Virus record (IMG/VR): IMGVR_UViG_3300026183_000930
Coordinates: 1 to 64,000 of that record
Origin: a virus
Direction: 5' to 3' (one strand)
DNA: 64,000 nt
Shown here piece by piece: positions 4,429-50,587 of the stretch. Numbering within the stretch: position 1 is the stretch's first letter; each line of letters opens with the position of its first letter. The notes under the pieces were generated by a model. That model was not told where the DNA came from and did not search any database. It saw only the letters and a program-made list of their open reading frames with translations. Position numbers and translations under genes: made by a program.

Positions 4429-4505
4429 GCTGTAAAGTTCACACCCAAGCACCCATGCTAAAGACCTGTTTAAACAGCTTTACAGCGTCTTACAGTGGGG
4501 TCTTT
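4429..4505. repeat. Interlocking inverted repeats (possible pseudoknot)
   Basis: GCTGTAAAG (4429-4437) is perfectly complementary to CTTTACAGC (4478-4486). AAAGACC (4460-4466), inside that loop, is complementary to GGTCTTT (4499-4505), outside it. The two helices cross in the order of an H-type pseudoknot or could be alternatives. CTGTTTAAACAG (4466-4477) is also self-complementary. Either strand could carry the structure. Confidence 0.4.
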
Positions 4506-22807: not shown

Positions 22808-23077
22808 ATGAGGGATATAATTGCAAACATAATGAAACCAAAAAAGTGGAAAAAAATAAAAGCCAAAGCACCAAAAGTGCCCGGCAACACTTGTCCACAA
22901 ATAGATGAGGTGTTGTTGACTTTGGAAAAAATTCAAACAGGACAAAAAAGATTCACACAGTTTCAACATGATCAGTTGATGAAGAAAATGGAAAAACTGC
23001 GTACAGCCAATGAGTCATTACGTAACAGCGGTATCTATTGGTACGAAGTTTGCAAAGACAATCTTAAACCTGAATAA
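22808..23077 (+). CDS. 89-aa late protein, unknown
   Basis: A basic, helical protein with Pro-rich linker KAPKVPGNTCPQ and a coiled-coil-like segment (residues 38-75). It is preceded by a perfect late octamer. A second ATG at 22832 is possible, but the promoter position favours 22808. Last part has two aromatic residues before an acidic end. No family recognised. Confidence 0.7.
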   Translation: MRDIIANIMKPKKWKKIKAKAPKVPGNTCPQIDEVLLTLEKIQTGQKRFTQFQHDQLMKKMEKLRTANESLRNSGIYWYEVCKDNLKPE

Positions 23078-31960: not shown

Positions 31961-33457
31961 ATGGTCACATGGGGAATAACAGCACTAGGACATGATGCTT
32001 CAATCACAGTTTTAGAAGATTCTAAAATTTTGTTTGCGGCACATTCAGAAAGATATTCTAGAATCAAAAACGATGAATATTTAAACGAACAAATAGTCAA
32101 TGATGCATTACAGTATGGAATACCAGAAAAAATAATTTGGTATGAAAAACCTTTGCTTAAGAAAACAAGACAGATATATGCTGGACAATGGTCTGAGGCT
32201 CTGTCAAATAAAAACTTACCAAAAAATTATTTGAAACAGTTTTTTGATTTTATTGAACCAATGCCCAAAATAAAATATGTTCCTCATCACCAAAGTCATG
32301 CGGCCGCTGGTGCTTACACTTCTCCTTTTAACAAAGCAACAGTTGTGGTACTAGATGCTATTGGTGAATGGGACAGTTGCAGTGTTTGGAAATATGATAG
32401 AAGTAAAACTGTTAGTCCTTTAAAAAAATTAGAATCATCTAGATACCCACACAGTTTTGGATTACTGTATTCGGCATTTACTCAGCGTTGCGGACTCAAA
32501 CCCAACGAAGAAGAATATATTTTAATGGGTATGTCTGCTTATGGCAAACCAATTTATGCTGATCAAATAAGAAAAGATTTCATTGAAAATGTGTTTCCTT
32601 TTAGATTAAAAATTAATCCTCATGCTGGTATTGGTAATTATTTGCCAGAAGCATCAAACGAAGATCTTGCAAGTTCAATACAATTTATTGCTGATGAAGT
32701 CATATTTAGATATGTGTCTGCCGCAATTAATTTAACAAAAGAACGTAATTTAATTTTTATGGGCGGTGTTGCACTTAACTGTTTATCAAATAGAAAACTG
32801 TTAAACATCTGTGACAGTATATGGATTATGCCTAACCCGGGTGATGCTGGTAATTCATTAGGTGCCGCCTGTTTAGAACACGGACCAGTTTATTGGGAGT
32901 CACCATTTTTGGGAACAGAAATCAAAGGTGAGTATCCTGTTGATGAAATCATACAAGAACTAACAAAAAATAAAATATGTGGAGTAGCCAATGGTCGTGC
33001 AGAGTTTGGGCCAAGAGCATTAGGCAATAGATCATTACTTGCTGATCCACGTGGATTAGAAATCAAAGACAAAGTAAATGAAATCAAACGCAGACAAAAG
33101 TTTAGACCTTTTGCACCAAGTATTCTATCTGAACATCTCAGCGATTACTTTGATGTAAACACAAATCAAAGTCCATACATGCAATTTATTGCTGATGCTA
33201 AACCTAATACAATAAAAGAAATGCCAGCAATAATACATGCCGATGGTACTGCTAGAGTACAAACAGTTTCACAAAATGACAATCCAGGATTTAGAAAATT
33301 GCTTGAAGCATGGTATGAAAAAACAGGTTGTCCAATGTTATTAAATACTAGTCTAAACATTAGAGGAGAACCTCTAGTTAACAATGAACAAGATGCAGAA
33401 GCGTTTGAAAAAAAATATAACGTAAAAGTTTTTACAAAAGGAGTTAACAATAAATGA
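31961..33457 (+). CDS. Carbamoyltransferase, TobZ/NodU/CmcH family
   Basis: 498 residues. The N-terminal Kae1-like part has GHDAS, HHQSHAAAGAYTSP (around residues 107-120) with metal-binding His residues, DAIGEWDS and GGVALNC. The C-terminal YrdC-like part has GRAEFGPRALGNRS, FRPFAPS and NTSLNIRGEP. These motifs identify O-carbamoyltransferases that use carbamoyl phosphate. Family members modify sugars or antibiotics, and viral members have been linked to carbamoylation of 5-hydroxymethylcytosine. Which applies here is unknown. Confidence 0.92.
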   Translation: MVTWGITALGHDASITVLEDSKILFAAHSERYSRIKNDEYLNEQIVNDALQYGIPEKIIWYEKPLLKKTRQIYAGQWSEALSNKNLPKNYLKQFFDFIEPMPKIKYVPHHQSHAAAGAYTSPFNKATVVVLDAIGEWDSCSVWKYDRSKTVSPLKKLESSRYPHSFGLLYSAFTQRCGLKPNEEEYILMGMSAYGKPIYADQIRKDFIENVFPFRLKINPHAGIGNYLPEASNEDLASSIQFIADEVIFRYVSAAINLTKERNLIFMGGVALNCLSNRKLLNICDSIWIMPNPGDAGNSLGAACLEHGPVYWESPFLGTEIKGEYPVDEIIQELTKNKICGVANGRAEFGPRALGNRSLLADPRGLEIKDKVNEIKRRQKFRPFAPSILSEHLSDYFDVNTNQSPYMQFIADAKPNTIKEMPAIIHADGTARVQTVSQNDNPGFRKLLEAWYEKTGCPMLLNTSLNIRGEPLVNNEQDAEAFEKKYNVKVFTKGVNNK

Positions 33458-34719
33458 AAAAGAAAGTTGCAATGATAGGTGTTGGCAAACTAGGTGAACC
33501 TTGTGCTGAAGCCATGTCAGAATATCATGACGTTGTAGGTTATGATGTATTACCAAGAACACCAAAGTTTCCAATCAAAGAATCAATTCAAGAAGCAGTG
33601 GCTGATAGAGATCTTATTTTTATTGCCGCTCCTACACCTCACAATGCCAAGTATGATGGAAGACATCCTACAGCACACTTAGACAACAAAGATTTTGATT
33701 ATACTATTGTAAAAAACATTCTTAAAGAAGTAAACAAATTTGTAAACAAAAAACAGTTGGTAATTTTAATTTCAACAGTGCTTCCAGGCACAGTAAGAAG
33801 AGAGCTTGAACCATTGATAACAAATGCAAGATTTGTTTACAATCCATATTTGATTGCCATGGGCACAGTCAAATGGGATTTCTTAAATCCAGAAATGGTC
33901 ATGATTGGCACAGAAAATGGATCAGAAACTGGTGATGCCAAAGAACTTGTAGACTTTTATAAAACCATGATGCAGAATGATCCAAGATATGTTATTGGCA
34001 CATGGGATGAATGTGAATGTATCAAAGTATTCTACAACACATTTATTTCTGCAAAAATATCATTGGTAAACATGATACAAGATGTTGCTGAAAAACAAGG
34101 CAACATAAATGTGGATGTTGTTACCAAAGCACTTGCTGATTCCGATCAAAGAATTATGGGACCAAAATACATGACAGCAGGCATGGGTGATGGCGGCGCT
34201 TGTCATCCAAGAGACAATATTGCACTGCGTTACATGGCAGAAAATTTAGGACTGGGTTACGATTTGTTTGATGCTGTAATGAAAGCAAGAGAAATACAAG
34301 CAGAAAATCTTGCTAAGAAATTAGTCAGTTATGGCAATCCTGTAATTATTGTTGGTAAAGCATACAAACCAAATGTCAAATACATTGATGGATCTTACAG
34401 CATACTTGTGGGTCATTATGTAGAACAAAATGGAACACAACTGTATTATCATGATCCTTTGTGTGGAGAAACTGCGCCAGAAACAGCAGGACCATACACT
34501 TACTTAATGGCACATGATCCATCAGTTTCGTTCTTGATGAGCAAAAAACCCACCGAGGGTGAAGATATCAGCATAGCATTTCAACCAGGATCAGTCATTG
34601 TTGATCCATGGAGAAAGATGAAATCAGTGGATCAATGTCAAGTGGTTTCATACGGTAACACAAGAACTGACAAAAAGCCTGAGCTAGTAGTACTGCCTGT
34701 TAATAATAAAACAGCATAA
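33454..34719 (+). CDS. UDP-glucose/GDP-mannose dehydrogenase family protein
   Basis: 421 residues. Rossmann motif GVGKLG (9-14), an APTPHN segment, and the catalytic region GGACHPRDN with the nucleophilic Cys near residue 250 identify the family that oxidises NDP-sugars to uronic acids through a thiohemiacetal. The family KD after Cys is RD here. The ATG overlaps the carbamoyltransferase stop, indicating coupling. It may make a uronic acid for glycan modification. Confidence 0.88.
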   Translation: MKKKVAMIGVGKLGEPCAEAMSEYHDVVGYDVLPRTPKFPIKESIQEAVADRDLIFIAAPTPHNAKYDGRHPTAHLDNKDFDYTIVKNILKEVNKFVNKKQLVILISTVLPGTVRRELEPLITNARFVYNPYLIAMGTVKWDFLNPEMVMIGTENGSETGDAKELVDFYKTMMQNDPRYVIGTWDECECIKVFYNTFISAKISLVNMIQDVAEKQGNINVDVVTKALADSDQRIMGPKYMTAGMGDGGACHPRDNIALRYMAENLGLGYDLFDAVMKAREIQAENLAKKLVSYGNPVIIVGKAYKPNVKYIDGSYSILVGHYVEQNGTQLYYHDPLCGETAPETAGPYTYLMAHDPSVSFLMSKKPTEGEDISIAFQPGSVIVDPWRKMKSVDQCQVVSYGNTRTDKKPELVVLPVNNKTA

Positions 34720-43951: not shown

Positions 43952-44079
43952 ATCACCCTCCCCGGTTAAAGTTTAGGTGCGTTCCTTCGCTTTATGCTAC
44001 TTCCGACCCTAATGGGTTGAACGTATTTGTATTTAGCATACCAGGTATGCAATTTTTTAATACTAGTTTACCCATAAAA

Positions 44080-44938: not shown

Positions 44939-45340
44939 TTACAAATCTCCTTGTTTTCTGTTTTCCGAATAGTAAACATCAAACTCACCACCCGGATAAC
45001 GTTTTTTTAATTTATTTACATTTTCTTCAATTACTTCGTTTGGGTTAAGACCAAGGCTCCTACAAGCATTAATCCAATACCACATAATATCGCCCAACTC
45101 TCGTTTAAGATGAAATACAGTTTCATCGTCCAATGGTTTGCCTTGGAATATACATTTTTTAATGATTTCATTAAACTCGCCTCCTTCACTTGCTATACCA
45201 ATACCGCCTGTCAGCAGTAAAGATATATTAACACCTTTTTTTTCCAGTTCAGTCATTTGCTGAACCATTGGTGCCAATTCATTACTTTCAGCAGATGTCA
45301 CTGCTTGTACAAATTCTTTATATCGGTTTAGGTCAATCAT
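44939..45340 (-). CDS. mazG: MazG-like nucleotide pyrophosphohydrolase
   Basis: The all-alpha NTP-PPase motif is present: GIASEGGEFNEIIKK (ExxE) followed by LKRELGDIMWYW (ExxD). 133 residues from the ATG at 45340, chosen because GGAG lies 8 nt upstream; an ATG at 45355 is also in frame. Marine phage MazG proteins hydrolyse dNTPs or related nucleotides; a role in ppGpp control has been proposed but is uncertain. Overlaps the radical SAM gene end slightly. Confidence 0.87.
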   Translation of the reverse strand: MIDLNRYKEFVQAVTSAESNELAPMVQQMTELEKKGVNISLLLTGGIGIASEGGEFNEIIKKCIFQGKPLDDETVFHLKRELGDIMWYWINACRSLGLNPNEVIEENVNKLKKRYPGGEFDVYYSENRKQGDL

Positions 45341-46506
45341 TTTTGTTTTCTCCATGTTTCATCTCCAGGCCACAATGGCAACTGTGTTCCTGGTGCTCTT
45401 TTTGGTATTTTTGAGTCAGCACTTGATACGCAAGTTGGTGATATACATTGTTGTGGTCGATCAAACAACTTGAATCCTGTTTCAATGTTTCCAATAGGCT
45501 TGTCATGACAACTGTAACTTCTTTTTATACTGCCATCTGGTTCTCTAATAATAATTGATCTATAACCAGAACTACATTCCCAGCCATTAAATCTATTAAA
45601 ATTAAAAGCATTAAATCTTTCTGCTTGATCCATGTACCATTCTTTGTGTTCAGAGTCTTTGAACTCTACTTGAAAGTGTTGTGGTATATTTTCTTTTTCA
45701 AAATTTTGATATATTGGATCAGGTATTTTATTAAATGTGGCTTTGGGTCTTTCAACATTTTTGTTTTTGTGTTCTGTGAAAGCACGTTGTGGCATTCCAT
45801 TGTGTAACTTTTCCAACATCTCATCTGTGTAGCCTTCAACAACTTTTGACGCTGTAGGATCTGATTGAGGTTTGAGCGTGACGTTAATACCTCTGTTGTG
45901 GAAATACAATGATTCCTCATATAGTTCATCGAACCATTCTGGTACCATGACTTGGTTGATTGTGACCTGCACATCCCATTCTTGTGCAAAACAAAGTTTG
46001 TCTGCAAACTGTTCTCTTTTCTCTTGTGTGTTAACGTGTTCCCTGTGGTATGAAGCCGTGATACTGGCTCTATGGAACGGTGCGACTGTGTTGACATATT
46101 GTTCAAACCATTTCATATTTCTACTGCAATTACTGGTCATGTGTACTGATGTGTAATTGGTATTGCTTACATCTTGTGCAAGGTGTTGGAGAATGTCCAA
46201 GTACCCAGGATGAAATGTGGGCTCTCCACCTGACAATGAAAAATGAAATGAATTGAATCCTCGTTCTCTGGCTTGCCGTTTGATTTCATCAATAGTGAGT
46301 AAACACAGTTCAGTGGGTCTGTGATCTTTTTTGTCTGATCTTGCATAGGGCCAACAGTAACTACATCTGTAATTACAGAACCTACCAAGCAACCAACTGA
46401 CAGTGAACATGTCACGATACAACATGGTACGTTGTCCAACTCTGACTAGATCGTCAAAAGGAATTTTGGTAAAATCGTATTCGCTCCATTTTAAATCATT
46501 ACTCAT
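45337..46506 (-). CDS. Radical SAM protein, SPASM-like C-terminus
   Basis: 389 residues. CxxxCxxC at C44, C48 and C51 (CNYRCSYC) and SLSGGEPTFHPG as SAM-binding motif. C-terminal cysteines (YSCHDKP and CISPTC) may hold an auxiliary cluster. It lies upstream of mazG and downstream of a glycosyltransferase-like and two SGNH-like genes in the same orientation. Substrate unknown. Confidence 0.88.
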   Translation of the reverse strand: MSNDLKWSEYDFTKIPFDDLVRVGQRTMLYRDMFTVSWLLGRFCNYRCSYCWPYARSDKKDHRPTELCLLTIDEIKRQARERGFNSFHFSLSGGEPTFHPGYLDILQHLAQDVSNTNYTSVHMTSNCSRNMKWFEQYVNTVAPFHRASITASYHREHVNTQEKREQFADKLCFAQEWDVQVTINQVMVPEWFDELYEESLYFHNRGINVTLKPQSDPTASKVVEGYTDEMLEKLHNGMPQRAFTEHKNKNVERPKATFNKIPDPIYQNFEKENIPQHFQVEFKDSEHKEWYMDQAERFNAFNFNRFNGWECSSGYRSIIIREPDGSIKRSYSCHDKPIGNIETGFKLFDRPQQCISPTCVSSADSKIPKRAPGTQLPLWPGDETWRKQK

Positions 46507-49582: not shown

Positions 49583-49632
49583 ATACAGGTAGGTTGTCGT
49601 AAAAAGAAATAACAAAATTTACTAATTTTGAA

Positions 49633-49722
49633 TTATCTTTTCTTTTTGTTTCTTCTTCTGGCTCGTCTTTTTTTAGAGCCTCTTTTTCGTCTACCACGAT
49701 GTGTTTTATCTTGTCTTGCCAT
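49633..49722 (-). CDS. 29-aa Arg/Lys-rich micro-protein
   Basis: Seventeen or so of 29 residues are Arg or Lys, with no acidic residue after position 5. A perfect late octamer TATAAATA (49731-49738) lies 8 nt upstream, which makes expression likely despite the short length. Its composition recalls protamine-like DNA-condensing peptides or small ribosomal peptides such as bTHX. Neither is proven. Confidence 0.55.
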   Translation of the reverse strand: MARQDKTHRGRRKRGSKKRRARRRNKKKR

Positions 49723-49730
49723 AGTGAGCG

Positions 49731-49738
49731 TATTTATA
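49731..49738 (-). promoter_or_regulatory. T4-type late promoter for the basic micro-protein
   Basis: Perfect TATAAATA on the minus strand, 8 nt before the ATG. Confidence 0.8.
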
Positions 49739-49750
49739 ACTCAGTCAAAA

Positions 49751-49790
49751 AAAAGCCCCGGACTAGTGTAACCAAATGTTACTGCCGGGG
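49751..49790 (-). terminator. Intrinsic terminator at the end of the hairpin array
   Basis: CCCCGG (49756-49761) pairs with CCGGGG (49785-49790), with an inner GTAAC/GTTAC stem. Eight A residues on the plus strand give a U run on the minus strand, so a minus-strand transcript coming from the hairpin array would end here. Confidence 0.85.
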
Positions 49791-49822
49791 TAAACAAAAA
49801 TACTTTTTTGTCTGTTATCATA

Positions 49823-50123
49823 TTCGAGCTTGTTGGCAGAATTTTATAAGCCTTTTTAAGAACATTCGTTCCGCTAACTGCCAGCTCGAACAATATGAGC
49901 ATTTTTAAACTACTGGAGTCGCTCAAAGCAAAGACATTTTTAAGCCACTATAGCCGTCTTTAAATAAAGGCACTCTTTATATCCTAAACGGAAGCCTTTT
50001 AAATGTAAGCCTTTTTACTTGCTACTGCATCGCTTACTAAAACGAAAGCCTATTTAAACTACTAGAGTCGCTTTCAATACTTGCTAAAGCATTTTTAAAC
50101 CTAAGTCGCTTTGTGTTGCAAGT
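49823..50123. repeat. Tandem array of hairpins with conserved loops and differing stems
   Basis: At least six units. Stems: TTCGAGCT/AGCTCGAA plus GGCAG/CTGCC (49823-49890), TGAGC/GCTCA (49896-49925), AAAGAC/GTCTTT (49930-49961), GTAAGC/GCTTAC (50005-50037), GAAAGC/GCTTTC (50044-50075) and AAAGC/GCTTT (50086-50112) inside ACTTGC/GCAAGT (50079-50123). Loops are about 20 nt and share a core like ATTTTTAAACTACTGGAGTC. Stems differ between units yet stay complementary, as expected when pairing is selected. No reading frame covers the array. Confidence 0.8.
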
Positions 50124-50272
50124 GTAATTAGTTATGACCTAAGATTGTTCTATATGTATCCAGTTAATATTTTTTTTATTAACACATCATATATCTGTTA
50201 TACTGCTTTTTTATTTTGCCACTTGGCCAATTAAGTAATTGTGCAATGAATGTTTGAACAGGAGATACTACT
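50124..50272. other. AT-rich gap upstream of the acidic gene
   Basis: No gene. Contains AT-rich runs and a TATACT-like -10 near 50197 on the plus strand without a good -35. I see no convincing promoter for the hairpin array on the minus strand here. Confidence 0.35.
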
Positions 50273-50587
50273 ATGGACAGGAACAAAATAGAACAGTTAG
50301 AAGAAAGACTTGATGAACTTGAAACAAAACTTGACGACATCATGTCTGTGCTGGAAATGGATAATGAGCATGATGATTACGAGTACGAAAATGATGAGCA
50401 TGACAATGAAGATGAAATTTGTGAAGATTGTTATGAGGCTCCATGTGCTTGTTACAACCATGATGATGAAGACAACGATTTTGAAGATGATGAAGATGAG
50501 GACGAAGAATACGTAGACGAAAACGATTGGGATTCATCTAATGATGATGAAGACGAAGATGAATATGACGACGAAAATGACAAATAA
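50273..50587 (+). CDS. Acidic protein with coiled coil and Cys cluster, 104 aa
   Basis: Residues 1-28 form a heptad-like coiled coil (IEQLEERLDELETKLDDI). Then comes an acidic stretch, a cysteine cluster CxxCxxxxCxC near 50-59, and a C-terminal run of Asp/Glu/Tyr. AGGAGATAC precedes the ATG. Strong negative charge fits a DNA mimic or a metal-dependent protein inhibitor; neither is shown. A 10-bp hairpin follows the stop. Confidence 0.7.
   Translation: MDRNKIEQLEERLDELETKLDDIMSVLEMDNEHDDYEYENDEHDNEDEICEDCYEAPCACYNHDDEDNDFEDDEDEDEEYVDENDWDSSNDDEDEDEYDDENDK

What the first reader, a model, noticed from the sequence alone, without database searches (positions are those of the whole stretch)
49823..50123. 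Array of small hairpins with conserved loops and covarying stems
Six or more hairpins follow one another in a non-coding gap. Loops share a 20-nt core (for example ATTTTTAAACTACTGGAGTC) while the stems differ: TGAGC/GCTCA, AAAGAC/GTCTTT, GTAAGC/GCTTAC, GAAAGC/GCTTTC, AAAGC/GCTTT. Stems that change yet stay complementary are the mark of selected pairing, in RNA or in single-stranded DNA. An intrinsic terminator on the minus strand (49751-49790) closes the region. The array is not CRISPR-like (no spacers, no constant palindromic repeat). It could be a multivalent RNA that binds several copies of a protein, or a DNA element read as hairpins.
Basis: seen in the sequence. Interest (0 to 1): 0.87.

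Follow-up and report, generated by a model that had tools for sequence, protein, structure and literature searches.

The report
Multi-hairpin noncoding RNA of marine phages
A large marine virus of bacteria carries an apparently undescribed gene for a structured RNA, not a protein, built from up to seven look-alike hairpins whose pairing is preserved across five related viruses, and it most likely works by binding several copies of some protein at once.

Summary
The region holds seven hairpin units, not chance repeats. They belong to a gene-sized element on the MINUS strand (~50,127 to 49,747) that ends in a conserved intrinsic terminator. Each unit is: outer stem; G; short inner stem-loop; an A-rich 3' bulge (UUAAAAAK); outer stem.

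I found the same element in four other phage records: 242 kb, 328 kb and 75 kb marine records, and a 13 kb phage contig inside a MAG. The last was found only through a protein neighbour and then proved to carry a five-unit array. Outer stems, inner stems, a closing helix and both terminator helices change on both sides while staying paired. Unit number varies from 1 to 7. No Rfam family matches. In three records the upstream neighbour gene is divergent, so the RNA is not a UTR there.

Best reading: a new family of stand-alone structured phage RNA, probably a multivalent protein-binding RNA. It is built like the CsrB/RsmZ sponge RNAs but lacks their GGA code. The RNA family is well supported. 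The protein-binding role is inferred. Transcription is not shown.

The parts
49747..50127 (-). whole predicted noncoding RNA gene (about 380 nt), 5' end near 50,120-50,130, 3' end at the terminator
   Evidence: homologous elements with the same order of parts in L463, G001, G009 and G014; 5' end inferred
49747..49790 (-). intrinsic terminator: outer stem CCCCGG/CCGGGG, inner stem GTAAC/GTTAC, 3' bulge ACTAGT, eight U
   Evidence: both helices covary across five phages, bulge (C)TAAGT-like in all
49792..49813 (-). pre-terminator hairpin AGACAAAAA/TTTTTGTTT
   Evidence: identical in L463, covarying in G001 (AGACTAAAAC/GTTTTTGTCT)
49823..49890 (-). compound 3' hairpin: P1 TTCGAGCT/AGCTCGAA, P2 GGCAG/CTGCC, then unit 1
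   Evidence: P1 and P2 covary in L463, G001, G009 and G014
49847..49877 (-). unit 1 (inner stem GAAC/GTTC)
49896..49925 (-). unit 2 (TGAGC/GCTCA; inner ACT/AGT)
49931..49960 (-). unit 3 (AAGAC/GTCTT; inner GCTA/TGGC with a U-G pair)
49965..49998 (-). unit 4, divergent unit, 34 nt identical in L463
50006..50036 (-). unit 5 (TAAGC/GCTTA; inner TGC/GCA)
50045..50074 (-). unit 6 (AAAGC/GCTTT extended to GAAAGC/GCTTTC; inner ACT/AGT)
50086..50112 (-). unit 7 (AAAGC/GCTTT; inner AC/GT)
   Evidence: same loop sequence in L463 9152-9178
50079..50123 (-). 5' closing stem ACTTGC/GCAAGT around unit 7
   Evidence: same closing stem in L463
50124..50200 (-). probable promoter region (GGTCATAACTAATTACACTTGC; GATAATTA-like motif in L463, G001 and G009)
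   Evidence: by eye, not a scored promoter (one search lists none here)
50273..50587 (+). divergent neighbour gene: acidic 104-aa protein; homologous and in the same divergent position in L463. Context, not part of the RNA

Best explanation
The minus strand carries a stand-alone noncoding RNA gene of about 380 nt that ends in its own intrinsic terminator. The transcript folds into a string of hairpins. Each presents the same small shape: a single G opposite an A-rich 3' bulge (UUAAAAAK), set between an outer stem of free sequence and a short inner stem-loop of free sequence. Because only the shape and the bulge are kept while unit number drifts from 1 to 7 between relatives, I infer that each unit is one binding site and that the RNA works by valency, titrating (or gathering) several copies of one RNA-binding protein during infection. 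Shown: homologous family, covarying helices, conserved terminator, variable copy number. Inferred: transcription, protein binding, sponge action, and whether the target is a host regulator or a host defence factor.
For: Units: outer helix 97.8% paired, 8 of 9 pairs with double changes; 0/500 shuffles reach the percentage paired, cells changed on both sides, or covariation score. With L463, G009 and G014 added: 87.3% paired, covariation score 0.633 against 0.234 in shuffles. Closing structure in five phages: 10 of 14 pairs with double changes against 4.1 in shuffles, 0/500. Terminator and outermost helices also covary. Hold-out recovery: model R2, built without them, finds L463 (2.9e-6), a second G009 copy (3.0e-6) and G014 (1.8e-4), and nothing at E<=0.05 in 48 other large-phage records or six cultured phages. 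L463 was fetched only by a neighbour protein and holds five tandem units. The element lies divergent from its upstream neighbour gene in the window, L463 and G009, so it is not a UTR there. No Rfam match. Wobble pairs fall on the minus strand, 5 to 0. UUAAAAA is enriched over shuffles in all five RNAs.
Against: No transcript data. No protein partner identified: no neighbour gene is shared by all five. Only five genomes, and paralogous units within one array are not fully independent; the alignments used for counting were fitted to the model. Folding energy is not unusual. G014 carries only one recognisable unit, which weakens a pure valency argument, and unit 4 is frozen in sequence, so the units are not all equivalent. 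The wobble count is small and the helices were drawn by me on the sense strand.
Confidence: 0.45

Rival explanations
1. The RNA is an anti-defence decoy of the type III antitoxin kind: tandem ~35-nt units mimic ToxI/AbiQ-type repeats and neutralise a host endoribonuclease, as the pseudo-ToxI of phage PhiTE does.
For: Unit length and head-to-tail order (start-to-start spacing 34-49 nt), A-rich single strands, variable copy number; precedent for phage pseudo-ToxI repeats (PMC5086642, PMC5449768).
Against: ToxI monomers are H-type pseudoknots; no consistent loop-to-linker pairing was seen by eye in these units. Unit sequences are much more diverse than the near-identical repeats of ToxI (the latter from general knowledge). 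No ToxN found in the five genomes, although that search had no positive control and a decoy would not need one.
Confidence: 0.12
2. The transcript is a precursor or array of small base-pairing regulators: the conserved parts, above all unit 4, act as antisense seeds against phage or host mRNAs.
For: Unit 4 is identical over 34 nt in L463 while other units vary, as a seed would be.
Against: The loops of the other units vary freely, opposite to seeds. The complement of the unit 4 loop has no second site in the window at up to 3 mismatches. The rest of the genome and the host were not tested.
Confidence: 0.15
3. A structural RNA that self-associates through A-rich bulges (A-minor contacts), in the manner of the GOLLD and ROOL phage RNAs, making a scaffold or compartment.
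For: Large phage noncoding RNA, many adenosine-rich bulges, nested helices; GOLLD and ROOL are phage RNAs that multimerise through A-minor and kissing contacts (PMC12286853).
Against: Variable unit number and single-stranded linkers are unlike a rigid cage. No Rfam match to GOLLD or ROOL. No conserved kissing loops seen.
Confidence: 0.1
4. A single-stranded DNA element (replication origin or recombination/packaging site) whose hairpins form in DNA.
For: Nearly all pairs are Watson-Crick; GC and AT skew change sign near the array.
Against: The skew change coincides with the switch of coding strand. The conserved terminator with its U tract sits at the 3' end of one strand only. Five wobble pairs on that strand and none on the other.
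Confidence: 0.06
5. No function: repeat expansion of mobile hairpins (REP-like) or chance.
For: Units are repeated and vary in number.
Against: Covariation above shuffles in paralogous and orthologous comparisons; conserved terminator and closing helix; a single locus per genome, not dispersed.
Confidence: 0.03

Closest known systems
CsrB/CsrC and RsmX/Y/Z sponge RNAs (CsrA/RsmE-binding)
   Same: Stand-alone RNA of a few hundred nt or less with an intrinsic terminator; several hairpins repeating one recognition element; acts by titrating a protein copy by copy (PMC4005645).
   Different: Recognition element is not A(N)GGA: GGA is at or below chance in all five RNAs. Here the repeated element is a 3' A-rich bulge below an inner stem. 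Encoded by a phage. No Rfam match.
GOLLD and ROOL phage noncoding RNAs
   Same: Large structured RNA genes of phages, function unknown, A-rich contacts possible (PMC12286853).
   Different: Sequence and secondary structure differ; no Rfam match; here serial hairpins of one type with variable number, no evidence of a cage.
Type III antitoxin RNAs (ToxI, AntiQ, CptI) and phage pseudo-ToxI
   Same: Tandem units of about 35 nt with A-rich single strands; phage-borne mimics are known (PMC5086642).
   Different: No pseudoknot seen, unit sequences diverse with covarying stems, no ToxN found in the genomes.
Glutamine riboswitch (RF01739), the riboswitch that lies ~6 kb away in the same window
   Same: Structured RNA of marine phages.
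   Different: Cis-regulatory, one copy before a gene; the array is not upstream of any gene on its strand before the terminator.

Membership tests
CsrB/RsmZ sponge RNAs | multiple GGA motifs, most in hairpin loops | tested here: not met
   GGA counts 2, 1, 0, 3, 0 in the five RNAs; shuffles average 2 to 3.4
CsrB/RsmZ sponge RNAs | match to the Rfam models of that group | tested here: not met
   no match to them at gathering or E<=10, nor in homologs at E<=1
CsrB/RsmZ sponge RNAs | stand-alone RNA with several hairpins and an intrinsic terminator | tested here: met
   (from sequence; transcription not shown)
CsrB/RsmZ sponge RNAs | binds several copies of CsrA/RsmE | not testable with these tools
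   needs pull-down or in vitro binding
Type III antitoxin RNA | tandem repeats of ~35 nt | tested here: met
   start-to-start spacing 34-49 nt
Type III antitoxin RNA | each repeat an H-type pseudoknot | tested here: inconclusive
   no consistent loop-linker complementarity by eye; no pseudoknot predictor at hand
Type III antitoxin RNA | encoded with a ToxN-family toxin | tested here: inconclusive
   PF13958 not found in G000, G001, G009, G014, G052, but the control genomes did not ring either
GOLLD / ROOL | match to their covariance models | tested here: not met
   Rfam release 15 scans
GOLLD / ROOL | homo-oligomeric assembly | not testable with these tools
   needs biophysics
CRISPR array | constant repeat with unique spacers | tested here: not met
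   stems vary and pair, bulge is kept, no spacers

The most novel reading that the evidence does not exclude
A previously undescribed family of phage RNA in which an A-rich bulged hairpin is a modular, copy-number-tunable binding site. A clade of large T4-related marine phages uses it as an RNA sponge against a host RNA-binding regulator or defence ribonuclease, and adds or loses units as an evolutionary dial.
Probability: 0.35. Interest if true: 0.85.

Novelty: new variant of a known kind. Interest (0 to 1): 0.66.

Why it matters
Few structured noncoding RNA families of phages are known beyond tRNAs, riboswitches and the GOLLD/ROOL group. This one adds a family from uncultured large marine phages, with a clear structural model, covariance models and five members, so it can be found and tested elsewhere. 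If the sponge reading is right, it would be a phage RNA that titrates a protein by repeated units, with natural variants carrying 1 to 7 units that allow a direct dose test.

Tried and rejected
Exact loop-core pattern in viral contigs: no hit. BLASTN of the region against phage records: only chance matches; likewise for the homologs. Relatives by the VWA-like protein and radical SAM protein: loci did not contain the array, but two of their full records did once searched with the model. Relatives by the 51,264 protein: synteny broken upstream, no array. Gapped patterns returned mostly coding-sequence chance hits; only records of the family were real (one apparent tandem, L295, is a protein-coding repeat). 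Candidate matches in G011 and G031 were chance. Window 4461-4491 scores 16.9 bits and was judged chance. Photosystem reaction-centre gene (PF00124) absent from the five genomes, so no sign of a cyanobacterial host. Skew as evidence for an origin was rejected because it follows gene direction. Complement of the unit 4 loop: no target in the window. A basic ~100-aa protein found in all five RNA-bearing genomes and in none of seven others was considered as partner; it may simply mark the clade.

Full report
What was checked. The window is part of a 124,221-base virus record. The region 49,583-50,272 holds no convincing protein gene: only short overlapping frames on either strand. A strict hairpin rule finds five of them in this region against 0.04 per dinucleotide shuffle, maximum 2 of 2000. 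The array is the only such cluster in the record. Minimum free energy is not unusual.

Anatomy. Read on the minus strand, each unit is: outer stem of 5-6 pairs closing with C-G; one G; inner stem of 2-4 pairs with a loop of 3-6; single-stranded UUAAAAAK on the 3' side; outer stem. Unit 1 is nested in two further helices, P2 (GGCAG/CTGCC, with a second A-rich 3' bulge UAAAAUU) and P1 (UUCGAGCU/AGCUCGAA). Unit 7 is closed by ACUUGC/GCAAGU. After P1 comes a hairpin AGACAAAAA/UUUUUGUUU and then an intrinsic terminator with eight U. The terminator itself has an inner stem and a 3' bulge.

Relatives. A pattern built on the units matched 99 stretches of IMG/VR. All but one looked like chance on inspection; the exception, IMGVR_UViG_3300020477_001008 (G001, 242,646 bases), has two tandem units followed by the same hairpin and terminator. 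A covariance model of the units (R1) run over 50 whole records of related large phages found two further tandem units in the 328,149-base record G009 (E 5.7e-5 and 0.002) and a weak match in the 75,415-base record G014. Reading them showed the full architecture in both, including the closing helix and terminator; G009 has a third unit. A model of the compound 3' hairpin (R2), built from three sequences only, recovered the held-out second G009 copy and G014.

An independent prediction. The four genomes share a close HAD-family protein (53-70% identity; related by annotation to T4 gp30.2). Searching bacterial and archaeal genome contigs for that protein alone returned one contig, NZLM01000038.1, filed in a Euryarchaeota MAG but by content a phage contig. 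It carries five tandem units and the compound hairpin at E 2.9e-6, next to a divergent homolog of the window's acidic protein. It is the closest relative: 3' hairpin identical and terminator nearly so, unit 4 identical over 34 nt, other units changed, P1 wholly replaced by a different complementary pair. None of the other 48 related large-phage records nor six cultured phages has a match at E<=0.05. Many of those records are fragments, so absence is only suggestive.

Covariation. Nine units from two phages: 88.9% of cells paired against 65.3% shuffled; 25 double-changed cells against 7.8; covariation score 0.735 against 0.254; none of 500 shuffles reaches these three. Fifteen distinct units from five phages: 87.3% and 0.633 against 66.3% and 0.234. 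Compound hairpin of five phages: 91.4% paired, 10 of 14 pairs with double changes against 4.1, 0/500; the closing helix P2 is 100% paired. Sliding the partners by 1-3 columns destroys the signal in each case. P1 and both terminator helices pair in all five with different sequences. Limits: shuffle counts are not probabilities, units of one array are related, and the alignments were fitted to the models.

Strand and transcription unit. The terminator stands at the 3' end of the minus strand and is conserved in all five. Wobble pairs are 5 on this strand and 0 on the other, which is few, and the helices were drawn on this strand. In the window, in L463 and in G009 the upstream neighbour gene is divergent, so the RNA needs its own promoter there; in G001 and G014 a gene on the same strand lies upstream. 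A GATAATTA motif precedes the element in L463, G001 and G009 with a weaker form in the window; this was seen by eye, and the sigma-70 scan lists nothing there. That scan also does not list the terminator, because its inner stem makes the loop too long for the rule used.

What it is not. No Rfam family matches the window element or its relatives. It is not a CsrB-type RNA by sequence: GGA is not enriched. It is not filed as a type III antitoxin: no pseudoknot seen and no ToxN found, though that protein search had no positive control. It is not GOLLD or ROOL by covariance model. A literature search for phage noncoding RNAs of this form returned nothing matching within the papers held; only titles and abstracts of most hits were seen, and subscription papers are not covered.

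Mechanism. The parts kept are the bulge, the closing C-G pair and the geometry; stem sequences and loop sequences are free; unit number runs from 7 (window) through 5 (L463), 3 (G009) and 2 (G001) to 1 (G014). That is the pattern expected of a multivalent binding RNA, so the best single reading is a protein-binding sponge or gatherer, with confidence 0.45 for that role and about 0.93 that this is a real, selected RNA structure. Exceptions are the frozen unit 4, which may have a role of its own, and the single-unit G014 member. A basic ~100-aa protein occurs in all five genomes that carry the RNA and in none of seven others, adjacent to the RNA in G001; it is a candidate partner but may only mark the clade. 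Host unknown; G001 and G009 carry a T4-type capsid protein, and none of the five genomes has a photosystem reaction-centre gene.

Noticed in passing
window 43976-44025 (-); L182 2388-2440 (+): Glutamine riboswitch (RF01739) in the window phage and another about 0.8 kb downstream of the homologous RNA in the 242 kb record.
   Followed up: no
window 50273-50587 (+): Very acidic coiled-coil protein with a C-x-D-C-Y-x-x-P-C-A-C motif, no family match; homologs in L463 and G001.
   Followed up: partly
window 22808-23077 (+): Small basic protein (APKxPxxTCPxID) found in all five RNA-bearing genomes and none of seven related ones tested; weak match to phrog_1034 of unknown function.
   Followed up: partly
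window 49965-49998: Unit 4 is identical over 34 nt in the closest relative while its neighbours changed, suggesting a separate constraint.
   Followed up: partly
L350 7570-7650: In the 328 kb phage the same RNA also carries four plain hairpins with short varied loops (GAGAAC/GTTCTC, GGAAGC/GCTTCC, GGAAGA/TCTTCC, TAGAC/GTCTA) between bulged units.
   Followed up: no
window 45337-46506 (-), 31961-34719 (+): Radical SAM protein (up to 85% identical in other large uncultured phages, absent from the cultured phage set), Nol-like carbamoyltransferase and UDP-glucose dehydrogenase genes.
   Followed up: no
L463 (NZLM01000038.1): A contig filed in a Euryarchaeota MAG looks like a phage contig (PhoH-like, gp30.2-like, tail-fibre-like genes), i.e. 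a probable binning error.
   Followed up: partly
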